Shown here one piece after another: positions 9,483 to 21,679 of a stretch of 64,000 nucleotides of DNA. Location of the stretch: positions 2,680,001-2,744,000 of the forward strand of contig NZ_CP083239.1 in NCBI RefSeq assembly GCF_022836935.1, read 5' to 3'. Below the pieces are notes generated by a model. That model saw only the letters and a program-made list of their open reading frames with translations, did no database searches and was not told the origin of the DNA. Within the stretch, counting starts at the first letter, position 1; the number at the start of each line of letters is the position of its first letter. Made by a program: the position numbers and the translations under genes. The DNA comes from Ancylobacter polymorphus. GTDB lineage: Bacteria > Pseudomonadota > Alphaproteobacteria > Rhizobiales > Xanthobacteraceae.

Positions 9483-11609
9483 TCATGTCGCCTTGGCATG
9501 AAAGAAGTCGTAAACCGCCCGCGCCGTCGCCGCGTTCACCCCCGGCACGCCTTCGAGATCGGCGAGCGAGGCGCGTTCAATGGCTTTGAGCGTGCCGAAA
9601 TGGTGCAGCAGCGCGCGCTTGCGGGTCGGGCCGATGCCGGGAATTTCCTGCAGCCCGGCCTGGGTCAGGTCCTTCTTGCGCCGCGCGCGGTGCGAGCCGA
9701 TGGCGAAGCGGTGCGCCTCGTCGCGCAGGCGCTGGACGAAATACAGCACCGGGTCGCGCGGCTCCAGCCGGAAGGGCTCGCGCCCCGCGACATAGAAGGT
9801 CTCGCGGCCGGCGTCGCGGTCCGGCCCCTTGGCGACGCCGACCATCGGCACATCGGTGACGCCGAGGCCGGCGAGGGTTTCCTGCGCCGCCTTCAACTGG
9901 CCGGGGCCGCCGTCGATGAGCAGAAGGTCCGGCCAGGCGGAGGAGGCGGCGGACGGCATGTCGTCGGCTTCCCTCTCCCCGTCGGGGAGAGGTGGCCCGC
10001 GAAGCGGGTCGGTGAGGGGGGGCGCGCGTGCCGGTTCCGGAGGCGGCTCCCCCTCACCCCAACCCTCTCCCCCAAGGGGAGAGGGGGAAGGGAGGGGCAC
10101 CGCCCGCGGATTCTCCTTCAAGAGGCGGGAGAAGCGGCGGGTCAGCACTTCGCGCATCATGCCGTAATCGTCGCCCGGGGTGAGTTCGGTCGAGCGGATG
10201 TTGAACTTGCGGTACTGGCTCTTGGCGAAGCCTTCCGGCCCGGCGACGATCATGCCGCCGACGGCGTTCGAGCCCATGATGTGGCTGTTGTCATAGACCT
10301 CGATCCGCTTCGGCGGGCCCTGGAGCGCGAAGGCGCGGGCGAGCTCTTCCAGCAGCCGGGCCTGGCTGGCGCTTTCCGCCAGCTTGCGGCCGAGCGCCTC
10401 GCGGGCGTTCTGCAGCGCGTGCTCGACCAGCTCGCGCTTCTCGCCGCGCTTGGGAGCCGCGATCTCCACGCGATGGCCGGCGCGGGTGGAAAGCGCCTCT
10501 TCCAGCAGCTCGCGCTCGGCAATGTCATGGCTGAGCAGGATGAGGCGCGGGCAGGGCTTGTCCTCGTAGAACTGGGCGAGGAAGGATTCCAGCACCTCGC
10601 CGATCTCCAGCGTCCGGTCGGCGCGGGGATAGAGCGCGTGGTTGCCCCAGTTCTGGCCGGTGCGGAAGAAGAACACCTGCACGCAGGTCGCCCCGCCTTC
10701 CTGATGGATGGCGAACACGTCCGCCTCTTCCACCGAGCGCGGGTTGATGCCCTGCGTGCCCTGCACGGCGGAGAGCGCCGCGAGGCGGTCGCGCAGGGCG
10801 GCGGCGCGCTCGAATTCAAGCTCCTGCGAGGCGGCTTCCATCTCCCGCGCCAATTGCTCCTTCACCGCCTTGCTGCGGCCGGAGAGGAAGTCGCGCGCCT
10901 CGCGGACATATTCGGCATAGTCGGTGTGGCTGACCTCGCCGGTGCAGGGGCCGGCGCAGCGCTTGATCTGGAACAGCAGGCAGGGGCGGGTGCGCGCCTC
11001 GTAGAAGCTGTCGGAGCAGGAGCGCACCAGAAACGCCTTTTGCAGCGCGTTGATGGTGCGGTTCACCGCCCAGACCGAGGCGAAGGGCCCGTAATAGTCG
11101 CCCGGCCGGTTGCGGGCGCCGCGATGCTTGGTGATCTGCGGCGAGACATGGTCGCGGGTGATGAGGATATAGGGAAACGACTTGTCGTCGCGCAGCAGCA
11201 CGTTGAAGCGCGGGCGCAGCTGCTTGATCAGGTTGGCTTCCAGCAGCAGCGCTTCGGTCTCGGTGCCGGTGGAGACGAATTCCATCTCGGCCGTGGCCGC
11301 CACCATGCGCATGATGCGGGCGGTCAGCCCGGTCGGGCGGGTATAAGCGACGATGCGGCGCTTGATGCTCTTGGCCTTGCCGACATAGAGCACCGTGCCG
11401 TCCGGCCCCAGCATGCGGTACACGCCGGGCCCGCTCGGCGCGTGCTTGAGGGCGCGCGCAATGGCGGCGCGGCCCATGGCGACGGAGCCCGGCGCGGGCT
11501 CGGCCTCCTCGGCTAGGTCGGCAATGAGGGCCTCGTCCTGGTCGAGCTCGGCGATGTCGGCATCGTCGGTGTCGAGGTCGGGCATGTCGCGGGTCGGTCG
11601 GGCAATCAT
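9483..11609 (-). CDS. uvrC: Excinuclease ABC subunit C (with repeat-derived internal insertion)
   Basis: 708 residues; UvrC makes the 3' and 5' incisions in nucleotide excision repair with UvrA/UvrB. Order: acidic N-terminal extension; GIY-YIG nuclease near 58-135 ([18 protein letters not shown]); Cys-rich segment [16 protein letters not shown] helix ([13 protein letters not shown]); C-terminal RNase H-like nuclease ([17 protein letters not shown] ... [11 protein letters not shown]); and helix-hairpin-helix ([16 protein letters not shown]). Between LLKENPRA and [10 protein letters not shown] lies a 45-50 residue low-complexity stretch rich in Pro/Gly/Glu, encoded by an intergenic-type palindromic repeat (see repeat entry). 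Catalytic parts look intact, so the gene is probably functional. Confidence 0.95.
9965..10100. repeat. Palindromic repeat inserted in frame inside uvrC
   Basis: Two hairpins share the core CCTCTCCCC-NNN-GGGGAGAGG: 9972-9992 (spacer GTC) and 10063-10085 (longer arms, spacer CAA). They flank a proline-coding linker. Such CTC/GAG-rich palindromes are usual in intergenic DNA of high-GC proteobacteria. Here the element keeps the reading frame and lies in a non-conserved linker of UvrC, encoding peptides such as [18 protein letters not shown]. The element borders are approximate. Confidence 0.85.
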
Positions 11610-11981
11610 GTGTCCCTAGATACGCATCTGCGGCGCGGGCGAACAGGGGGCGGGTGCCTCTTCCCCGCGCCTGTTTCCGTTGCGGCATAGGGCTGGAACA
11701 TGCGCCGGGCGCCGGAAACGACGCCGTCTTCGCTCTCCGCCGCCGATTGGCGAGACCCCTGATACCCGGGGGAATCGGCGGTCGGGATTTGGTGTATGGA
11801 CCGACGCGCCCGAGAGGTGCCGTTCGGCGTTCTGCCGCTGAAATCCCTGGCTGAACTCATCGCTTTCCCGGCAGTGATTTGCTGGTGGAACTTGTCGCCG
11901 GGAATAAAAAGCGGCTTAGTGTTCTTCCCATTTTACCTGTCGGCAATGGCGATACCGGCCTTATCGGAGCCGCATACGGGC
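11610..11981. other. Intergenic region between uvrC and the accessory island
   Basis: 372 bases with no convincing gene. It holds the left copy of the 44-bp direct repeat (11672-11715). From about 11880 on it has a lower GC content than its surroundings. An ATG-initiated extension of the next gene (from 11796) is open but has no recognisable domain and mixed hydrophobic content. Confidence 0.6.
11672..11715 (+). repeat. Left copy of 44-bp direct repeat bounding the island
   Basis: Matches 21636-21679 at 42 of 44 positions, in the same orientation. The shared blocks are a 16-base block at 11672, a 16-base block at 11689 and a 10-base block at 11706, separated by single C/T differences. Inside it TGTTTCC and GGAACA form an imperfect inverted repeat. 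The two copies lie 9,964 bases apart. Confidence 0.85.
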
Positions 11982-12905
11982 ATGCGCTTCAGTCTATTCC
12001 GCTCCCGCCGCACGAGACCTCTCATTCTCGTCCTTGGCATGCATCGCAGCGGGACGTCGGCGACCACGGCCGTTCTGGGCAAGCTGGGGTTCGCCATGCC
12101 CAGGATCCCTATGGCGCGGCATGAGGACAACCCAACCGGCTATTGGGAGTCGGCGCGTCTATGCGCGTTGCATGACGATATGCTGAGGGAGGCCGGCAGC
12201 CGATGGGACGACTGGACGGCGCTGCGGCTGGTGGCTAACCGGGCCCGCACCCGCAAGCTTTTGGCGGTGCTGGGAAAGGAATTCGATCTGAGCCGCATCA
12301 GCACCGTGAAGGACCCTCGCATCTGCCGGATGGTGCCCTTTTGGCTGGATGCCCTGGCGACCGGCGGGCTCAGCCCGCGCATCGTGATCCCCTACCGGAA
12401 TCCGCTGGAAGTGGTCGCCTCCCTTGCCAAGCGTGGCGACGCAATGACCACGGAACATGGTCTCCTCCTCTGGCTCCGCCATGTCCTGGACGCGGAGGCC
12501 GAGACACGCGATCAGCGCCGGGTGTTCCTGCGCTACGACCGGTTGATCGAGGATTGGCCCGGCACAATGGCACGGGTGGGGCGGGCGCTTGAACTGGAAT
12601 GGCCGGTCGCGCCCGCAGAAGTCGCCACCGAGATCGACGCCTTCCTCGACAAACGCCTTCGGCGCCAGATGGTGACGGAGCCGGAACTGCGCCTGTTCAA
12701 CCCCTGGCTGGCCGACACCTTTGACGCTCTCGATATCCTCAGCGACGAGAGCCGCGACCCGACCGTGGCGACGGAGACGCTCGACCGGATACGCCACGCA
12801 TTCAACGCGATGTGCGCGACCCGGCGGGACGAACTGCCGTTCCTCATCCGGTCGCAGGCCGCCTCCGCTCCTTCCGATACCGCGTTCGCGCCCCCGAGCG
12901 GCTGA
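11982..12905 (+). CDS. Stand-alone PAPS-dependent sulfotransferase family protein
   Basis: 307 residues from the ATG at 11982. It has the 5'-phosphosulfate-binding loop LVLGMHRSGTSATT near residues 16-28 at the start of an alpha/beta fold. Later come KDPRICRMVPFW and IPYRNPLEVVASLAKR, which resemble the 3'-phosphate-binding Arg/Ser strand of the family (R-N-P). Proteins of this type transfer sulfate from PAPS to glycans or small molecules; the acceptor is unknown. An upstream in-frame codon at 11796 would add 62 residues without a domain, so the start just before the P-loop strand is preferred; GGAG at 11966-11969 is a weak ribosome site. It is separated from the following operon by 174 bases. 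Confidence 0.82.
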   Translation: MRFSLFRSRRTRPLILVLGMHRSGTSATTAVLGKLGFAMPRIPMARHEDNPTGYWESARLCALHDDMLREAGSRWDDWTALRLVANRARTRKLLAVLGKEFDLSRISTVKDPRICRMVPFWLDALATGGLSPRIVIPYRNPLEVVASLAKRGDAMTTEHGLLLWLRHVLDAEAETRDQRRVFLRYDRLIEDWPGTMARVGRALELEWPVAPAEVATEIDAFLDKRLRRQMVTEPELRLFNPWLADTFDALDILSDESRDPTVATETLDRIRHAFNAMCATRRDELPFLIRSQAASAPSDTAFAPPSG

Positions 12906-13038
12906 GGCGACGACCGGGCGACGGCAGAAAGGGCGGGAAGGGCGTGACGTTCCGCCGAAGCCTCGGTGCCGACCGACACGCGGGAGCGGTGACGTTACCA
13001 TCTGCGGTGTTCCGATCTGGCGTCCCGACGGTGGCTAT

Positions 13039-13044
13039 TATAAT
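13039..13044 (+). promoter_or_regulatory. Possible -10 element of the island operon
   Basis: TATAAT within the AT-rich patch 13036-13047, strikingly low in GC for this genome, 36 bases before the oxygenase ATG. No good -35 box lies 17 bases upstream, so this is only a candidate. Confidence 0.35.
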
Positions 13045-13079
13045 AATCGAACGAAAATCACCGGAGTTCGGTAGCTGCC

Positions 13080-13892
13080 ATGGTGGATGTAACGATCGCC
13101 CCGCCCGGTGCCTGCGTTGCGCAACTGCATCGCGACCCCTTTCCTTATGGCTGGATCGACAATTATCTGCCCGCCGACATCTATGAGGCGCTGGATCGCC
13201 GCTTCGTCATGCCCGACCAGCATCCGGCTCTCGACACGCTGAAAATGGGCAAGAAGCGGATCCTGTTCCGCATGCCCCCCGTCCCCACGCTGCTCGATGG
13301 CATCGATCCGCTGTGGAAGGGTTTCCTCCACGCGCTGTCAACGCGTGATTTTCTCAGCCATTGCCTGGAATGGACGAAGCAACTCGTTCCGCTCGACACG
13401 CTGCCCGCCGGTCCGTATCGCGAGCTGTTCAGCCTTCGCCAGAAGCTGACGCCCGAACAGGTGGAACTTCAATGCGAGTTTTCGAGCATCGAAGACGGTG
13501 CCTTGCTGCCGCCGCACTCCGACTCCGTCGACAAGCTGCTGATCTTCGTCCTGTATTTCGCGCAGCCCGATTGGCGTGAAGGCTGGGGCGGCGCGACCGA
13601 ACTTTATCGCCCGCTCAACCCGGCGCAGGAGATCAATTTCAGCAATTTCTTCCTTCACCGGGAACAGGTGGAACTGATCGGCTCCAGCGCCTTCCGCCCG
13701 AACCGCCTGTTCTTCTTCGCCAAGACGGACCGTGCGTGGCATGGGGTTTCCGCCCTCGATCCCGCCGCCGCGCTTCCCCGGCGTTCGTTCAATTTCAGCC
13801 TGCGGATCCGGGCCGACGCCACGGTCGATCCCGCCATGGGGCGCCTGCAGGAAACCATCCGCACGCATGAGCAGCGGGCCTTTGCGGCGTGA
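13080..13892 (+). CDS. 2-oxoglutarate/Fe(II)-dependent oxygenase (prolyl-hydroxylase-like)
   Basis: 270 residues. The iron ligands are readable: H146-S-D148 in LPPHSDSVDK and distal H221 in AWHGVS. The 2OG-binding Arg follows about ten residues later in LPRRSFNFSLRI. The strands between them (LLIFVLYFAQPDW, WGGATELYRP) match the double-stranded beta-helix of the 2OG-FeII_Oxy family. Expected chemistry is hydroxylation or related oxidation with succinate and CO2 as by-products; the substrate is unknown. Its last four bases overlap the GTG of the next gene (GTGA), tying it to the synthetase fusion and suggesting that it tailors a carrier-bound or released product. Confidence 0.85.
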   Translation: MVDVTIAPPGACVAQLHRDPFPYGWIDNYLPADIYEALDRRFVMPDQHPALDTLKMGKKRILFRMPPVPTLLDGIDPLWKGFLHALSTRDFLSHCLEWTKQLVPLDTLPAGPYRELFSLRQKLTPEQVELQCEFSSIEDGALLPPHSDSVDKLLIFVLYFAQPDWREGWGGATELYRPLNPAQEINFSNFFLHREQVELIGSSAFRPNRLFFFAKTDRAWHGVSALDPAAALPRRSFNFSLRIRADATVDPAMGRLQETIRTHEQRAFAA

Positions 13893-16765
13893 GCGAGCCG
13901 GCGGACGCTCTCGGTTGGCACACACTGGAGCTGTGGGCGCGCCGGCAGCCGCAAGCGGCCGCCATGCTCGCCACAGGAGACCGGCCGCCGCTGCGCTGGG
14001 GGGATCTGCCCGCCTGCATCGCAGGGCTCGCCCGCCGGCTTGAACAGGCCGGGGCGGGGCGGGGCGCGCGCATTGCCTTTCTCGTGCCGGCGGGCGCGGA
14101 AGCGGCGACGCTCTGCCTCGCGGCGATGCGCACCGGCATTGCGGTGCCGCTCAACCCGGAACTCACCGCCGCCGAGATCGCCTCGGCGCTGCGGCGCCTG
14201 CGCCCGCATCTGCTCGTTTTCCGGCCGGGGCTGCCCGGCACGCCCGAAGCCGTTGCCGCGTCCTTCGGCGTCCCCACCCTCGCCGTCGAATGGTCGCCGG
14301 CTGATGTCGCCGGCTGGCCGCGCCTCGGGCCCGCCTCGGGAGAGGCGCTTGCCGTCGACGGCGACGATCCGCTGGCCGCTCCCGCCGGCACGCGGATGAT
14401 CCTCCAGACCTCCGGAACGACGGCGCAGCCCAAGCTGGTGCCTCTCACCGAGACGAACCTGTTTGCCGCCGCCGCTGCGCTGATCGGATCGCTCGGCCTG
14501 ACCGCGCGCGACCGCGGCCTGAACCTGCTTCCGCAATTTCATATCGGCGGCCTGTGGGACCTGATCGCCGCGCCGCTTCTCTCCGGCGGAAGCGTCATCT
14601 GCGCCGGCGCGTTCTCGCGGGCGGCGTTCGAGGCCGGCTGCGGGCTGGCGCCGACCTGGACCCAGCTGGTGCCGAGCATGATCCGCGCGCTTGTGGATGC
14701 GCCGCTCGCCGCCGGTGTGCCGCCGTCCTCGCTCCGGTTTCTACGTTCAGTCTCGGCACCCTTGCCGCCCGCGCTGAAGGACGAGGCGACCGAAAAGCTC
14801 GGCGTTCCAATCGTCGAGATTTACGGCATGACCGAGACCGCCGGGGTCATCGCCAGCAATCCGCTGGAGCCGGCGCTCCAGCGCGCCGGATCGGTGGGGC
14901 GGTGCGTGGGGCCGGACATCGTCATCCGCCGCCCCTCGGGAGAGGTGGCGGCGCCGGGCGAGGAAGGCGAGGTCGTGGTGCGCGGGCCGCAGGTCTCCCC
15001 CGGCTATCTCGCCGCCGCGGCCGGTGATGCCGCCGTCTTCGGAGCTGACGGGTTCCACACCGGCGATCTCGGGCGGCTGGATGCGGATGGCCATCTGTGG
15101 CTGCTCGGGCGGCTCAAGGATCTCATAAATCGCGGCGGCGAGAAGATCAGCCCGGCGGAGATCGAGGCGGCGCTGCTGTCGCTGGACGGCATCGCCGACG
15201 CGGCCGCCTTTGCCGTGCCGCACCCAATGCTCGGCGAGGAGATCGAGGCCGCTCTCGTCCCCGCGCCTTCGCTGGTCGGAACCCTCAATCGCGACGCCCT
15301 CCGCGCCGCGCTTCGCCCCCTGCTCGGGCATGGGCGGGTGCCGGCGCGGCTGCATGTTGTCGAGGCGATCCCGCGCACCGCCGGCGGCAAGCTGCAGCGT
15401 CACCTTCTGGTCGAGCGCTTCGCCACGGCCCCGGCGGCGCCGGCCGCGCCCGCATCGCCGCCGCAGGACTGGCCGCGACGGCCTCTGGCCCGCTGGGTCG
15501 CGGGAATCTGGGCCGGGGTGCTCGGCAAGGACACGATGGGCGGCGAGGAAGACTTCTTCCAGTGCGGGGGCACGTCGCTTCAGGCGGCGCAGGCCGCTAC
15601 CCTCATCCAGGCCCGTTTTCCCGAGCACATTCTTTACGTCTCATCGGTCTATGAGGCGCCCACGCCGGACCTTCAGGCGACGTTCCTCGCCACGCATTAT
15701 CCGGAACTCGCCGCGCGTGCCATCGGACAGGAATTTCACCGACGGGACATCGTCCTCCCGCCGGTGACGGATGCCGAACGCGCGGTGTTTCGCCGTGCGC
15801 TGGCCGATCCGCTGCCGTCGCGTCGCGCCGAGGCTTCCCGCAATCCGCCAGCGGTGTTCGTTCTGAGCCCGCCGCGCTCCGGCTCGACGCTTCTGCGTGC
15901 GATGCTGGCCGGCCACACGCAGCTCTTCGCGCCGCCCGAACTCTATCTGCTGAGCCATCCCGATCTCGCGGCGCGGCGGGCATGGTATGGCGCCGCCCAT
16001 GGCTCGCAGCTGGAAGGGTTGCCGCGCGCCTTTGTCGGGGCGATGGGGCTCGGGCCGGATGAGGCCGCCGCGCTGGTGGACGAGATGGAAAGCGCGGGTG
16101 CGTCGGCGGCGGAGGTCTATGGGCGATTGCAGGCCGCGATCGGCACCCGGCGGCTGGTCGACAAGACGCCGTTCTATGGGCTTTATCCGCATGTTCTCGA
16201 TGCCGCCGAGACGGTGTTCGATAACGCGGTCTATATTCATCTCAGCCGCCACCCCTATGGGATGATCCGTTCGTTCGACGAGGCACGGCTCGGCCAGTTG
16301 TGGTGGCCGCGTCTGGCGGGTCCCGGGGCTGACGCGACCTGTCCGCTGCCCTCGCACCAGCTGGCGGAACTCATCTGGGCCAGCATCCACGCCAATGTGC
16401 TCGGCTTTCTCGACGGTATCCCGGACGCGCGGCAGGTGCATCTGCGCTACGAGGACCTTGTCGAGCAGCCCGAGGCGGCGTGCGCGCGGCTCTGCACGGC
16501 GCTCGGCCTGGACTTCGAACCCGCCATGCTCGACCCGCTTGGCGACCCCGCGCAGCGCATGACCGATGGGCTGCGGCCGGGCTCGCGCATGATCGGCGAT
16601 CCCAAATTCCACGCGCATCGCGGCATCGAGCGGGAGAGCGCCCATCGCTGGAAGCGCGATTATGACCGCGACTTCCTCTGCGAGGAGACGTGGCGCCTCG
16701 CCGAGCGCCTCGGCCATGGGGAGCGCCTTGCGGATGGCGCAGATCGCATCGTTTTCGAAATATAA
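13889..16765 (+). CDS. Adenylation - carrier protein - sulfotransferase fusion
   Basis: 958 residues, GTG start overlapping the previous stop. Domain 1 (about 1-505): adenylate-forming enzyme of the acyl-CoA-synthetase type, with the P-loop TSGTTAQPK (T174), YGMTE (Y312), TGDLGRLD (D393), the hinge region [20 protein letters not shown], and catalytic Lys501 in TAGGKLQR. Domain 2 (about 520-600): carrier protein with phosphopantetheine site [10 protein letters not shown] (S563). Domain 3 (about 650-945): sulfotransferase with PAPS loop [10 protein letters not shown] (661-667) and the strand [15 protein letters not shown]. It should activate a carboxylic acid, tether it to S563 and sulfate the bound or a partner substrate. 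The A domain looks more like FadD-type ligases than amino-acid A domains, so the substrate may be an acyl or aryl acid. Inferred, not shown. Confidence 0.88.
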
Positions 16766-16844
16766 CTCACGCATGGGAAAGCAGGCGATTGACCCGCTTC
16801 CTGGCTCGTCGCACAAGGCAGTGGGGTAGGGCGGCCTTAGGGCC

Positions 16845-19646
16845 GTGTGCAGCTCGTTGGCGGGGGCGTCAGTGCACGGGTTGGTGGGGGAGTCGTCGGG
16901 CCGCGGAGCAACGGGTGCGTTGCGCCTGCTCGAAGAACTGGGCGAGAGCGGCATTCGCCTGTGGGTCGAAGACGGGCGGCTGTGCTGCAGTGCGCCGGCC
17001 GACCGGCTTGACGACACGCTGCGCACACGGCTCAAGGCCGAGCGAGAGGCGCTCATCGCGCTGCTTGCCCCTTCCGGGGCGGCCGAAATTCCGGCCTCGG
17101 CCGGCGTAACGCGTCGGCCTGCTGAGGCGCCGCGCGCCTTGACCTTCGCGCAGGAGGCATTGCTTGCGCTCGCGCGCGCCCGCGCCGCAGACGGTGTCTA
17201 TCACGTCCCGGTCGCGATCGACCTGGCGGGCGCCTTGAACCCCAACGCCCTCTACAATGCGGTGAACGCGCTTCATGACCGGCACGAAGCGCTGCGGTTC
17301 TGCTTTCCCGCCGAGGCTGCGGGGCCCGTCCTGCGGCCGCGCATGGCGCGGATCACCATTGAGGAGTCCGTGGCCTTTGCGGCGACGGCGACGCGCGGGG
17401 GCGAGGGCCTGCCGGCTGAGGTGGCGCAGGCGCTTCGTCGTGCCACGGCGCGGCCGTTCGATCTGGAGCGCGGGCCGCTCTGGCGCTATTGCGTGTTCAC
17501 GCTCGGCCCGGCGCGCACCGTCCTCCTCTTCGTCTTTCACCATCTCATCTTCGACGGCTTCTCGCGCGACGTGTTCCTCTCCGAACTGTCGGAACTGCTG
17601 GCGATGCCGACCATCGCTCTTGCGCCTCCGCCGGCCGCGTCGCCGCCGCGTGTCCAGTGCGCGGATATCGCGGCCTGGGAACGCCAGATGGCCGAAGGCC
17701 CGCGCGGGCAGCACTCGCGCGTGTGGTGGGGCGAACGCTTCCCGGAGCCCCATCCTCCCGCTTCCTTGCCGGGTCTGGCCGGCCCGCCCGAGGCCGACGG
17801 CTCCGTGCGCATCACCTTCGCGCCCGATCTTGCCGAGGCGCTGCGGGCGCGGGCGGGGGACATCCGCCAGCCGGTCGGTGCGCTGGCGCTGACCGGGGCG
17901 GCACTGGCGCTGCACCGCGTGACCGGTCAGAACCGCGTCCTGTTGTGCACCCCGCTGGCCAATCGCGATCAGCCGGAAGCGGCGGAGGTGATCGGCTATC
18001 TCAGCCGCCTCGTCCCCCTCTCCGTGCCGCTGCCGCCGGCCGCCACGGCCTCGGACATCGTGGCGGAGCTGGCACGCGGCCTTTTTGCCGCCAACGGTCA
18101 TCGTTTCCTGTCCGGTGCCGAGATGATGGCGGCGCCCGGGCTGGCGCGCACCCCGATCAACCATGTCATGGCGGCGTGGCAGGAGCGCCGTCAGGGCGCG
18201 CTGCGGATCAACGACAGGCCGGTTGCGCTTGTGCCGGTGGAGCGGGAGAGCGCGGATTTTGCCCTCGCTCTCCAGTTCGAGGCCGATGGCACCGCGTTGT
18301 CCTGCCAGATCAGCTATCGCGGCGATGTCATGGGCCGCACCGGGGCTCTGGCCTTCGGCGACCTGCTTGGCGAGGTGCTCGCCGCCGTCGCGGGCGATGA
18401 CTCCCACCTGCCGATTGCGGAACTCGCCCCGCCTCAGGTGTCCTGTGATCGGCTCAGGACGCTGCTGACCGGCCATCCCGGCGTCGACGATGCGGCCGTG
18501 CTCGCGGATGAGGCCAACGGCACGCTGTCGGCCTGGGTCGTGTTGAACGAGTTCAACCGAACCTCGGCGGACGAACTGAAGGCATGGCTCGGCGAGGCGA
18601 TCGGCGGGCTGCTGCCGGCGATCGAACTCACCTCGCTCGCCGCGCTGCCGCGCACGCCGGAAGGTGCGGTGGACCTTAAGGCGCTGCGCGACAGCGCGCT
18701 GACACGCCGGCAACGCCCGTTCCTCGCGCCGCAATCCGCTCTCGAAGAGACGATCGCGGAACTCTGGCGCGAGATAATGTGGCTGGAGCGTCCCGTCGGA
18801 CGCGACGAGCATTTCAGGGATCTGGGCGGCCATTCGCTGCTCGCGGTCCGGATGCTCGCCGATCTGGAACAGCGCCTTGGCCGGCGGCTTTCCGCCGAGG
18901 TGCTCATGAAGCTGGGAACGGTGGCGGCCTTTGCTGCGGCCATCGAGGGCGACGACGGCATCGGTGACGGGCCCCCTGTGGTGGAGAGTGGCCTCGACCC
19001 GGAGATTCTTGCCCGGCTGCATGCCTATACGGCGAGCTGGAAAGGAGAGCGCCCCTTCCCGGGCGCCCTCATCGTCGGGCTCAATCTGCGCGGAAAAAGG
19101 CGGCCTCTGTTCTGGTGCCTGCAGAACGGGACCGAGTTTGAGCAACTGGCGCGATATATCGGCGACGATCAGCCGGTGTTCGGTATGCGTTCCGGTCACG
19201 AGGCGATGGTCAAGTCGCCGGAGAATATTGACCGGCTGGCCGCCCATTATGCCGGCGAGATCATGCGGACCGTGGCGCAGGGGCCGCTCTTCATCGGCGG
19301 CAACTGCCAGGCGGCGACCATCGCCTTCCACGTCGCCCGCCACGTCGTTGCCGCCGGACGGGAGGTCGCGCTGCTGGTGCTGCACGAGAAGATGGTGCCG
19401 GAGCGCTATGGCGGGCGGGTGGCCCTGAGTTTCGGGCGCGAGAGCAGCCGCAACCCTTATCTCTGGAACGAAGACCCCGCCGCCGAATTCCGCGCGCATT
19501 TCGTCGGCGATTTCACCATCGATCTGGTGTCGGGGGGGCATGGGCAGTTCTTTCACGAGCCGCACATTTTCGATCTGGTCGAGATGATCCGCCGCCGCCG
19601 CGATGAGGTGCCGGCGTTGGAACCGCAGGGTCGGGGCGGCAGATAG
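16845..19646 (+). CDS. NRPS-like protein: TubC docking - condensation - vestigial A - carrier - thioesterase
   Basis: 933 residues from a GTG at 16845 (GTGs at 16872 and 16884 are possible; no clear ribosome site). Order: TubC-type N-terminal docking domain near 26-68 (LLEELGESGIRLWVEDGRL); condensation domain near 97-530 with the HHxxxDG motif (H232-H233 ... D237-G238); a leftover of the adenylation C-terminal subdomain near 540-620, ending PRTPEGAVDLKAL where the usual catalytic Lys of G-K is Ala608; carrier domain with DLGGHSLL (S664); thioesterase near 725-920 with GGNCQA (Cys821 at the nucleophile position) and GGHGQFF (His899). It has no complete A domain, so its carrier must be loaded by another enzyme. 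It probably joins two building blocks and releases the product. Confidence 0.88.
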   Translation: MCSSLAGASVHGLVGESSGRGATGALRLLEELGESGIRLWVEDGRLCCSAPADRLDDTLRTRLKAEREALIALLAPSGAAEIPASAGVTRRPAEAPRALTFAQEALLALARARAADGVYHVPVAIDLAGALNPNALYNAVNALHDRHEALRFCFPAEAAGPVLRPRMARITIEESVAFAATATRGGEGLPAEVAQALRRATARPFDLERGPLWRYCVFTLGPARTVLLFVFHHLIFDGFSRDVFLSELSELLAMPTIALAPPPAASPPRVQCADIAAWERQMAEGPRGQHSRVWWGERFPEPHPPASLPGLAGPPEADGSVRITFAPDLAEALRARAGDIRQPVGALALTGAALALHRVTGQNRVLLCTPLANRDQPEAAEVIGYLSRLVPLSVPLPPAATASDIVAELARGLFAANGHRFLSGAEMMAAPGLARTPINHVMAAWQERRQGALRINDRPVALVPVERESADFALALQFEADGTALSCQISYRGDVMGRTGALAFGDLLGEVLAAVAGDDSHLPIAELAPPQVSCDRLRTLLTGHPGVDDAAVLADEANGTLSAWVVLNEFNRTSADELKAWLGEAIGGLLPAIELTSLAALPRTPEGAVDLKALRDSALTRRQRPFLAPQSALEETIAELWREIMWLERPVGRDEHFRDLGGHSLLAVRMLADLEQRLGRRLSAEVLMKLGTVAAFAAAIEGDDGIGDGPPVVESGLDPEILARLHAYTASWKGERPFPGALIVGLNLRGKRRPLFWCLQNGTEFEQLARYIGDDQPVFGMRSGHEAMVKSPENIDRLAAHYAGEIMRTVAQGPLFIGGNCQAATIAFHVARHVVAAGREVALLVLHEKMVPERYGGRVALSFGRESSRNPYLWNEDPAAEFRAHFVGDFTIDLVSGGHGQFFHEPHIFDLVEMIRRRRDEVPALEPQGRGGR

Positions 19647-19658
19647 GGGGCAGGTAAG

Positions 19659-20792
19659 GTGTCGAGGGTCTGGTACGAACAGCTGCGGCAGGGGGTGCGT
19701 CGCGGCGGCGGGATGTTCAACGCGCATTTGCACCTCGACCGAGCCGGCACTTTCGATGACCGGTACCTGCCCGGCACGGGGCATCGCATGGTGGAGGACT
19801 TCCACGTCTCGCTGAAGCGCAAGCATGCGATGATCGCGGACCTGCATGCCGGGCCGGCCTTTGATCGCGACGACTTCTTTGCCCGTGTGGAGGACGCGCT
19901 GGCGGAGATGGTCGCGGTGGACACACGCCGGGCCGACACCATGGTCGATGTCACGCCCAATCCGCGCGTCGGCCTCAAAGATCTCGGCTGGATGCAGGAG
20001 ATCAAGGTGCGCTGGGCGGACCGGATCGATCTGCGGCTGGGGGCCTATACCCCTTTCGGTTTCGACGATGCCGACCCCGCCCGCTGGGAGATTTTCGCCG
20101 AGGGCGCGCGGCGGGCCGATTTCATCGGCTGCCTGCCGGAGGCGGACGATATTGACGATTATCCCAGCCATATCGGTTTCACCGAGCACTGCCGGCGCGT
20201 GCTGGAACTGGCGCAAGAGCTCGGCAAGATGCTCCACGTCCATACGGATCAGCGGTTCGAGGCCGGCGAGTGCGGCACGGAGCGGCTGATCGAGACGATC
20301 CGCCGCCATGGCGCGCCGCAATCGCCGGAGGGCGAGCCCATGGTGTGGGCGGTGCATATGGTCTCGCCCTCGACCTATGACGACGCCCGGTTCTGGCGCC
20401 TCGCCGACGCCATGGCCGAACTGAACATCGGTCTCATCGCCTGCCCCTCGGCGGCGCTGGGCATGCGGATGCTGCGCCCGCTGCAGGCCCCGACCGGCAA
20501 TTGCATGCCACGTATCCTCGAACTGCTGAGCCGCGGGGTCGCGGTGCGGCTGGGGTCCGACAATATCGCCGACATCTGCTCGCCCAGCACCACGCCCGAC
20601 CTGGTGGACGAAGCCTTCGTGCTCTCGGCGGCGCTGCGCTTCTACCAGCCGGAGATCATCGCCCGGCTGCTGTGCGGCCAGCGGCTCGATGCCTCCGAGC
20701 GGGCCTTCGTCACCGAGCATCTGCGCCGCAATGACGAGGAGATCCGCTACGCGCTGGGCAAGAAGCGCACGGCCGCGCCGGGCTTGGACTGA
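19659..20792 (+). CDS. Amidohydrolase-superfamily metalloenzyme (cytosine-deaminase/N-acyl hydrolase-like)
   Basis: 377 residues, GTG start 12 bases after the NRPS-like gene. Metal-binding residues of the amidohydrolase superfamily are visible: H23-x-H25 in FNAHLHLD, a later His pair in LHVHTDQ, His in VWAVHMVSP, and the acid in RLGSDNIADI. The H-x-H near residue 24 and the G-S-D signature fit the deaminase/chlorohydrolase branch, which hydrolyses C-N bonds. There is no signal peptide. Its place inside the operon suggests that it acts on a precursor or removes an amino or protecting group; the substrate is unknown. Confidence 0.78.
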   Translation: MSRVWYEQLRQGVRRGGGMFNAHLHLDRAGTFDDRYLPGTGHRMVEDFHVSLKRKHAMIADLHAGPAFDRDDFFARVEDALAEMVAVDTRRADTMVDVTPNPRVGLKDLGWMQEIKVRWADRIDLRLGAYTPFGFDDADPARWEIFAEGARRADFIGCLPEADDIDDYPSHIGFTEHCRRVLELAQELGKMLHVHTDQRFEAGECGTERLIETIRRHGAPQSPEGEPMVWAVHMVSPSTYDDARFWRLADAMAELNIGLIACPSAALGMRMLRPLQAPTGNCMPRILELLSRGVAVRLGSDNIADICSPSTTPDLVDEAFVLSAALRFYQPEIIARLLCGQRLDASERAFVTEHLRRNDEEIRYALGKKRTAAPGLD

Positions 20793-20824
20793 ACACGACC
20801 GATCGGATGCCTCAGGGGGCGGGT

Positions 20825-21562
20825 ATGTTTCTGCACGTGAACTGCTTCAAATGGGGCGATCTTTACAGCGCCGATGATGTCAACCGGCTGCGGGCGATGT
20901 TCCTTCGGCACCTCACCGTGCCGCACGTCTTCCACTGCGTCACGGACGATCCGGAAGGGCTGCGGCCGGATATCGAGGTGCACCCGCTGCCGAGCTACGA
21001 TTTCTGCGACTGGGACCTCGGCAATGGCCGCAAGCTGCTGCTGTTCAGCGATAACTATCTCGGGCTGAACGGCGAACTCGTGGTGCAGACCGATATCGAC
21101 ATGGTGCTGATCGGCAATGTGGACTTTCTCGCCGATCGTCCGGAGGAGGATTTCCTCATCGTGCGCGGCCGAAACCAGAGCGGCAATACGCGCGGGCATG
21201 CGGCGATCCTTCGCCACCGCATCGGGACCCTTACCCATGTGTGGGACCGGCTGGTGGCGGATCCGGCGATGGCGGTGGCGACCTGCCAGCACCATCGCGG
21301 CGCTCCGGGGCATATCTCCGACCAGCGCTGGCTCGACCGTAACCTCGACGAGATGCCCTTCTTCGAGGAGGGCCGGGTGGTTTATTTCCGCCAGGACTGC
21401 AACGCCTATGCCGACCACGACAACCCCAAGGGGGAGGCCATGCCCCCGGCTGGGGCGCGCATCGTCTCCTTCGCCGGCAAGATGAAGCCGCAGCATGTCA
21501 TGCAGGGCAGCTACCAGAATTGCCGGCACGCGCCTTTCGTGGCGGTTCACTGGCGCGAATAG
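20825..21562 (+). CDS. Putative glycosyltransferase-like protein
   Basis: 245 residues from ATG 20825 (G-rich ribosome site just upstream; an ATG at 20807 is also in frame). It begins with FLHVNCFKWGDLYSADDVNRLRAMFLRHLTVPHVFHCVTDD, an alpha/beta nucleotide-sugar-transferase-like opening. A D-x-D motif, VVQTDIDMVLIG, sits on the predicted central strand. Similar small proteins are annotated as GT8-like or hypothetical in alphaproteobacteria; activity is inferred only from the pattern. It is the last gene of the island operon, followed by the right copy of the direct repeat. Confidence 0.6.
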   Translation: MFLHVNCFKWGDLYSADDVNRLRAMFLRHLTVPHVFHCVTDDPEGLRPDIEVHPLPSYDFCDWDLGNGRKLLLFSDNYLGLNGELVVQTDIDMVLIGNVDFLADRPEEDFLIVRGRNQSGNTRGHAAILRHRIGTLTHVWDRLVADPAMAVATCQHHRGAPGHISDQRWLDRNLDEMPFFEEGRVVYFRQDCNAYADHDNPKGEAMPPAGARIVSFAGKMKPQHVMQGSYQNCRHAPFVAVHWRE

Positions 21563-21635
21563 GACAGGGGCGGGCGCGCCGGGGGCACGGCTTTTCGCGG
21601 TCGAGGCCGGCAGGGCCCGGCGCGTCTTCCCGCGC

Positions 21636-21679
21636 TGTTTCCGTTGCGGCACAGGGCTGGAACATGCGTCGGGCGCCGG
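21636..21679 (+). repeat. Right copy of 44-bp direct repeat bounding the island
   Basis: 42 of 44 bases identical to 11672-11715, same orientation, in the 173-base gap between the glycosyltransferase-like gene and the EamA transporter. Similarity continues weakly upstream (CTTCC, CGCGC) with single-base gaps. Confidence 0.85.

What the first reader, a model, noticed from the sequence alone, without database searches (positions are those of the whole stretch)
11672..21679. Uncharacterised sulfotransferase/NRPS-like island with a six-gene composition
The sequence shows two PAPS-type sulfotransferase modules, one FadD-like adenylation domain, two carrier proteins, one condensation domain, one thioesterase, a 2OG/Fe(II) oxygenase, an amidohydrolase and a glycosyltransferase-like protein, packed in one direction. 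Each family is known. I do not recognise this combination as a described pathway. Inferred product: a sulfated, probably hydroxylated acyl or aryl conjugate of an amine, alcohol or amino acid, perhaps secreted or displayed on the surface.
Basis: partly seen in the sequence, partly recalled or inferred. Interest (0 to 1): 0.85.

Follow-up and report, generated by a model that had tools for sequence, protein, structure and literature searches.

The report
Split sulfotransferase-NRPS island in Ancylobacter
A six-gene island inserted between two ordinary genes of an Ancylobacter-type bacterium carries a small, split peptide-synthetase-like machine that appears to load an acid, add sulfate to it and join it to something else; its three-gene core recurs in distant bacteria, but its product is unknown.

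Summary
Six co-directional genes lie at 11796-21562: ST1; a 2OG oxygenase (OX); adenylation-carrier-sulfotransferase (APST); docking-condensation-carrier-thioesterase (CPTE); an amidohydrolase (AMH); a glycosyltransferase (GT). The block is a discrete insertion: 45-bp direct repeats (43 of 45 identical) bound it, and in 27 of 28 congener loci the two flanks match within 1.2 kb of each other without it. None of the six genes is an integrase.

The core is APST upstream of CPTE, in 10 of 26 loci of a named-genome scan (directly adjacent in 8), from Proteobacteria to Akkermansiaceae and Pontiellaceae MAGs; AMH follows in 8 of 10. OX and GT were each seen in 3 of 10, ST1 in none. APST's sulfotransferase is nearest CurM's. 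APST ends in a docking-peptide-like tail; CPTE begins with a docking domain, has lost its adenylation core and ends in a nearly lidless Cys-thioesterase that fails sulfazecin-TE criteria.

Best reading: a two-subunit NRPS makes a carrier-bound, O-sulfated acid and transfers it to an acceptor, perhaps on a surface glycan. Substrate, acceptor and product are undetermined; the literature searches made found no description.

The parts
11671..11715 (.). left copy of the 45-bp direct repeat that flanks the island
   Evidence: 43 of 45 identical to 21635-21679; empty site in congeners
11796..12905 (+). ST1, stand-alone sulfotransferase (Sulfotransfer_3), likely start 11982; in the island but not conserved with the core
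13080..13892 (+). OX, 2OG/Fe(II) oxygenase; its stop overlaps the APST start
13889..16765 (+). APST, adenylation - carrier - sulfotransferase subunit
13928..15391 (+). adenylation domain of APST (nearest solved structures: oxalate-CoA ligases); His at residue 218 in 38 of 39 aligned sequences
15491..15673 (+). carrier domain PCP1, Ser563 in 39 of 39
15848..16522 (+). sulfotransferase domain, CurM/OLS type, PAPS-site residues conserved
16730..16762 (+). C-terminal docking-peptide-like tail of APST (...RIVFEI)
   Evidence: docking class from PMC9113145
16845..19646 (+). CPTE, docking - condensation - adenylation remnant - carrier - thioesterase subunit; likely start 16872
16926..17066 (+). TubC_N beta-hairpin docking domain
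17136..18395 (+). condensation domain, HHxxxDG residues in 21 of 21
18465..18665 (+). remnant C-terminal subdomain of a lost adenylation domain; A10 Lys absent in 20 of 21
18750..18944 (+). carrier domain PCP2, Ser664 in 21 of 21
19062..19619 (+). thioesterase with Cys821, Glu848, His899 and almost no lid
19659..20792 (+). AMH, amidohydrolase related to cytosine deaminase
20807..21562 (+). GT, glycosyltransferase-like protein with a DID motif
21635..21679 (.). right copy of the 45-bp direct repeat

Best explanation
The island encodes a two-subunit NRPS-like assembly line. (1) APST's adenylation domain activates a carboxylic acid that is not an alpha-amino acid and loads it on PCP1 (inferred from the domain and its His at the A4 position). 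(2) Where OX is present, it adds or prepares a hydroxyl (inferred). (3) APST's CurM-type sulfotransferase moves sulfate from PAPS to that hydroxyl while the acid is on the carrier (inferred from homology). (4) The C-terminal tail of APST docks on the TubC_N domain of CPTE, and the condensation domain joins the sulfated acyl to an acceptor on PCP2 (docking parts seen, interaction inferred; how PCP2 is loaded without an adenylation domain is unknown). (5) The nearly lidless Cys-thioesterase releases or transfers the product. (6) AMH makes one further, strongly conserved hydrolytic step. GT and ST1 are accessory. The likeliest destination is a surface glycan or glycolipid, the weakest step. The confidence is for steps 1-4; the glycan destination alone I put near 0.25.
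For: Domain content and intact motifs. ST domain nearest CurM ST (199 bits) and the olefin-synthase ST (184 bits); CurM ST sulfates a carrier-bound beta-hydroxyacyl (PMC6274090 passages; for the olefin synthase this is recalled). TubC_N on CPTE and a conserved C-terminal tail on APST. In L019 a TauD-type hydroxylase carries the same docking domain and sits between APST and CPTE. Identities of the three proteins are correlated across loci (r 0.961, 0.860, 0.835; Mantel p 0.0005 each). In samples of 399 genomes of the order of L020's genome, AMH and APST were each found in the same 2, one being the centre itself. Sulfate-activation or carrier-activating genes lie near the core in relatives; the own genome has an APS-kinase locus and two ACPS-family loci.
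Against: No substrate, acceptor or product is known. PCP2 has no adenylation domain, and I saw no loading enzyme conserved with it. Two of 10 loci lack AMH nearby (L019 ends at the contig edge and its genome gave no match at 1e-40; L022 has none in its 22.7 kb, and its genome was not held). In L021 AMH lies in two frames and in L016 CPTE does. The bare G770 set has no OX or GT, so hydroxylation and glycosylation are not general. Glycan-type neighbours appear in 5 of 10 loci, two of these judged by eye only. Correlated distances can also come from shared vertical descent. The docking tail fits a loose pattern in 33 of 39 and a stricter one in 26 of 39.
Confidence: 0.5

Rival explanations
1. Sulfate is a leaving group, not a decoration: the sulfated hydroxyacyl is eliminated or displaced after condensation, giving an unsaturated or ring-closed product, by the logic of CurM. 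(Shares steps 1-4.)
For: The ST domain is of the CurM/OLS type, and in CurM the sulfate is lost in chain termination (PMC6274090); the TE is unusual.
Against: In the CurM-type ends the ST is followed by its own TE; here the ST ends the first subunit and the TE is on the second, after a further condensation step.
Confidence: 0.2
2. A diffusible sulfated small amide or ester (signal, siderophore-like or antibiotic) rather than a glycan decoration. (Shares steps 1-4.)
For: The bare APST-CPTE-AMH set of G770 has no recognised glycan genes beside it; small NRPS products are usually released (general knowledge).
Against: Glycosyltransferase or sulfotransferase neighbours in several relatives, GT and ST1 in the island; no exporter is among the six genes (EamA is a core gene).
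Confidence: 0.3
3. A sulfazecin-like monobactam cluster: sulfotransferase, oxygenase and Cys-TE form a beta-lactam.
Against: TE motif is Asn-Cys-Gln, not Gln-Cys-Asn; an acid sits after beta6 in 25 of 25, and the post-beta7 column holds an acid in only 14 of 25; CPTE has no adenylation core.
Confidence: 0.03
4. A decayed NRPS: the loss of the CPTE adenylation core makes it non-functional.
For: A10 Lys lost in 20 of 21; in A. aquaticus CPTE lies in two reading frames.
Against: The same loss is shared across the family while C, PCP2 and TE catalytic residues are invariant in 21 of 21.
Confidence: 0.05

Closest known systems
CurM (curacin) and cyanobacterial olefin-synthase carrier-ST-TE ends
   Same: Homologous sulfotransferase placed after a carrier domain.
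   Different: Here the carrier is loaded by an adenylation domain, no PKS domain was found, the ST is the C-terminal domain, and the TE is a Cys-type on another subunit after a condensation domain.
Sulfazecin NRPS (SulM) and its sulfotransferase
   Same: NRPS with a sulfotransferase and a Cys-nucleophile TE.
   Different: TE motif and acid position differ; no terminal adenylation core.
Oxalate-CoA ligases (5ie0, 6qjz, 8aff)
   Same: Closest solved relatives of the APST adenylation domain (248.6 bits for 5ie0).
   Different: APST is fused to a carrier; the similarity does not fix the substrate.
Beta-hairpin (TubC_N) docking domains with C-terminal short linear motifs
   Same: TubC_N before the condensation domain and a conserved tail at the C-terminus of the upstream subunit.
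   Different: The tail follows a sulfotransferase domain instead of a carrier.
Cytosine deaminase (CodA, 1k6w)
   Same: Related amidohydrolase; His23, His25, His195, His233 and Asp301 conserved in 17 of 17.
   Different: The residue aligned with CodA Glu217 is Gln198 in 17 of 17.
C-A-PCP-TE proteins with the same TE lineage (L025, L027, L029, L030)
   Same: TE 40-49% identical to the window's.
   Different: By BLAST they keep a region like the adenylation core that CPTE has lost.

Membership tests
NRPS-like assembly line | adenylation, carrier, condensation and thioesterase domains with intact catalytic residues | tested here: met
   (A10 Lys501 39 of 39, PCP Ser 39 of 39 and 21 of 21, HHxxxDG 21 of 21, TE Cys and His 21 of 21)
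NRPS-like assembly line | cis adenylation domain for the second carrier (usual, not obligatory: loading in trans is known, recalled) | tested here: not met
   CPTE keeps only a remnant, A10 Lys absent in 20 of 21
CurM/olefin-synthase termination | homologous sulfotransferase | tested here: met
CurM/olefin-synthase termination | ST followed by TE at the end of a PKS protein | tested here: not met
   ST ends APST; no PKS domain in APST or CPTE
Sulfazecin-type monobactam TE | Gln-Cys-Asn motif and Asp after beta7 | tested here: not met
   Asn-Cys-Gln 25 of 25 (partly circular, see Tried and rejected), acid after beta6 25 of 25, acid at the post-beta7 column 14 of 25; criteria from passages of PMC11298585
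Beta-hairpin docking pair | N-terminal TubC_N on the downstream subunit | tested here: met
Beta-hairpin docking pair | short linear motif at the upstream C-terminus that binds it | tested here: inconclusive
   loose tail pattern in 33 of 39, stricter one in 26 of 39; binding not testable here
Cytosine deaminase | catalytic Glu217 (role recalled) | tested here: not met
   Gln198 in 17 of 17
Integrative mobile element | discrete insertion with flanking direct repeats and an empty site elsewhere | tested here: met
Integrative mobile element | own integrase or transposase | tested here: not met
   none of the six genes is one (ST1, OX and GT also against PHROGs); shorter ORFs were not examined
Anti-phage defence system | match to known defence proteins | tested here: not met
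   PADLOC: one weak generic 2OG match for OX (23 bits), nothing for the other five

The most novel reading that the evidence does not exclude
A widespread, undescribed class of split NRPS in which the starter is O-sulfated on its carrier and then handed, through a nearly lidless Cys-thioesterase, to a surface glycan or glycolipid, so that an assembly line decorates the cell envelope; the Gln-type amidohydrolase performs a fixed final step on that conjugate.
Probability: 0.25. Interest if true: 0.75.

Novelty: new variant of a known kind. Interest (0 to 1): 0.55.

Why it matters
The core recurs in distant groups with one strongly conserved enzyme, so it probably makes one conserved chemical feature that is sulfated while still on the machine. 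If so, it would extend sulfotransferase-on-carrier chemistry from PKS ends such as CurM to an NRPS family, and it poses a testable question: how a carrier without an adenylation domain is loaded. The island is also a clear case of a biosynthetic cassette inserted without a recognisable recombinase among its genes.

Tried and rejected
Monobactam idea (Cys-TE + sulfotransferase + oxygenase): rejected on the TE criteria read in passages of PMC11298585. Acid at the post-beta7 TE position: first thought conserved, then counted at 14 of 25 and dropped. EamA as exporter of the product: rejected, it is a core neighbour of uvrC in congeners. Defence island or prophage: no support (for all six proteins; for three of the six). 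Oxalate as substrate: not concluded; a search for a paper on the oxalate site gave a list in which I saw none to read. GT structure: model too poor (mean pLDDT 48.2) and not searched; the GT profile found one chain, a galactosyltransferase at E 0.41. Promoter scan: one site on the other strand, 0.9 expected by chance. Literature: searches showed no description of this cluster; I saw only listings with the start of abstracts, except passages of PMC11298585, PMC9113145 and PMC6274090.

Limits of the counts: the loci were found with two TE motifs (GGNCQAAxI and GxH[GA][QE]FFxEP), so motif conservation in alignment A3 is partly circular for 23 of its 25 rows; the window, and the G770 locus found through AMH, are not chosen that way, nor is A1, whose 20 other rows come. 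Searches list only the best 120 of 768, 413 and 917 proteins; only the candidates sharing most words were scored; I take rows P0121-P0144 (24) as true CPTE relatives, by domain make-up. Alignments A1, A2 and A6 are selections (20, 38 and 16 of 120 listed rows, plus the window); one A2 row (P0032) is an outlier at 28% identity. The samples contain L020's own genome by design, so only G770 is an independent co-occurrence; one search scored two candidates per genome. Four of the six genomes with a match matched without the sulfotransferase part. ST1-like matches over 60 bits did occur in two TE-only loci, L039 and L041.
Full report
What is there. Six genes run on the + strand from 11796 to 21562. 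Pfam finds Sulfotransfer_3 in ST1; a 2OG-FeII oxygenase in OX; AMP-binding, AMP-binding_C, PP-binding and Sulfotransfer_3 in APST; TubC_N, Condensation, AMP-binding_C, PP-binding and Thioesterase in CPTE. AMH matches amidohydrolase and cytosine-deaminase models of NCBIfam below their cut-offs, and GT matches a PHROG glycosyltransferase family. OX and APST overlap by 4 bases, the listed CPTE start lies 79 bases after the APST stop, and AMH and GT follow with 12- and 14-base gaps, so OX-to-GT looks like one operon; ST1 ends 174 bases upstream of OX.

It is an insertion. A 45-base direct repeat, 43 of 45 identical, lies at 11671-11715 and 21635-21679. The left neighbour is uvrC (9483-11609, named by me from its sequence, not by a call) and the right one an EamA transporter. 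EamA is present in 28 of 29 other genomes of the genus. In 27 of the 28 loci fetched, the uvrC-side and EamA-side matches lie within 1.2 kb of each other and the island is absent from the gap; the remaining one, L066, gave no uvrC-side match. In the nearest genome by EamA identity, G008, the two sides overlap by 68 bases, a stretch that contains the repeat. G+C is 68.1% against 68.9% and 67.1% in the flanks, so composition does not betray it. At E 1e-60 only 1 of 29 other congeners has full-length APST: G028, whose contig length of 2018560 equals that of Ancylobacter aquaticus DSM 101. There OX-APST-CPTE-AMH-GT sit in the same order at another place, without ST1, CPTE lies in two frames, and the uvrC-EamA site is empty (L048).

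What is conserved. A scan of named genomes with the CPTE alignment gave 26 loci. In 10 of 26 (L016-L024, L026) CPTE has APST upstream, directly in 8 and with one gene between in L019 and L020; APST is cut by the contig end in L018. AMH follows in 8 of 10 (in L021 in two frames): L019 ends with its contig and its genome gave no AMH match, and L022 has none in its 22.7 kb. OX precedes APST in 3 of 10 (L018 is cut off) and GT follows AMH in 3 of 10, with a weak 26% match in L021. ST1 was beside the core in none of the 10 (matches over 60 bits); ST1-like matches were in L039 and L041. The other 16 loci share mainly the thioesterase lineage. In samples of 399 genomes of the order of L020's genome, AMH and APST were each found in the same two, one of them the centre itself. 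Among 385 alphaproteobacterial genomes AMH and full CPTE were found only in the window's own genome; G244 matched the CPTE thioesterase half. Of the best 120 APST proteins (119 with a contig length) and 120 AMH proteins, 20 exact contig lengths coincide, against a mean of 0.4 and a maximum of 4 in 1000 jittered draws. Pairwise identities of APST, CPTE and AMH are correlated across loci (r 0.961 on 12 sequences, 0.860 and 0.835 on 10; Mantel p 0.0005 each), which shared vertical descent could also give. AMH has the highest mean column identity (70% in 17 sequences) against 48% for CPTE (21) and 34% for APST (39); these sets differ in depth and make-up.

Neighbours in relatives. L020 has a group-1 glycosyltransferase, a Stf0 sulfotransferase, a CysN/APS-kinase protein, an inositol-phosphatase-family protein (the CysQ reading is mine) and a phosphopantetheinyl transferase (Pfam). 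L023 and L026 share the first two by BLAST, and L026 has a relative of the CysN/APS-kinase protein. Phosphopantetheinyl transferases lie near the core in L018, L020, L023 and L024 (Pfam for L020 and L024; BLAST for the others). Glycan-type genes in L021 and L024 were judged by eye. The own genome has an APS-kinase locus in a 646-residue frame and two ACPS-family loci, one about 10 kb from long NRPS-like frames.

Reading. These data support a two-subunit NRPS-like line that loads a non-amino acid, sulfates it on the carrier and condenses it with an acceptor. Shown: domains, motifs, co-conservation, insertion. Inferred: all chemistry. Unexplained: what loads PCP2, what AMH hydrolyses, and what the product is. 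The CurM comparison leaves open whether the sulfate stays or leaves. The glycan destination rests on neighbours only.

Novelty. I found no description of this combination in the searches (listings only, apart from the passages named above); most subscription papers, antiSMASH and MIBiG were not available. I rate it a new variant of a known kind: every domain is known, but the split A-PCP-ST / docking-C-(A lost)-PCP-CysTE / amidohydrolase set is not one I could match.

Noticed in passing
L016:9989-12788: In Ancylobacter aquaticus DSM 101 the CPTE gene lies in two overlapping reading frames (141 and 798 aa), so that copy may be broken or carry a sequencing error.
   Followed up: no
L019:8671-9972: A TubC_N docking domain fused to a TauD-type 2OG oxygenase sits between APST and CPTE, suggesting a hydroxylase that docks on the same subunit tail.
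   Followed up: partly
L036:4689-8495, L037:9962-13839, L038:3439-7002: In three loci from Rhodobacter, Amylibacter and Cypionkella MAGs a stand-alone protein of the same Cys-TE lineage lies near an AMP-ligase-like ORF and a third ORF of 323-340 aa, as if another small system shares this thioesterase; likeness of the third ORFs was judged by eye.
   Followed up: no
L050, L052, L053, L056, L059, L062, L063, L064, L067: In these nine congener loci about 0.98-1.2 kb not matched by the window lies between the uvrC and EamA sides, so the site may accept other short inserts.
   Followed up: no
L020:9203-12361 and CPTE homologues P0137-P0143: These CPTE proteins carry a C-terminal extension of about 120 residues that the window's CPTE lacks; the L020 protein showed no Pfam match there.
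   Followed up: no
P0083: A partial Thermoanaerobaculia MAG protein holds condensation, carrier and sulfotransferase domains with a 48% identical match to APST's carrier-sulfotransferase part, so this sulfotransferase also occurs in other NRPS settings.
   Followed up: no
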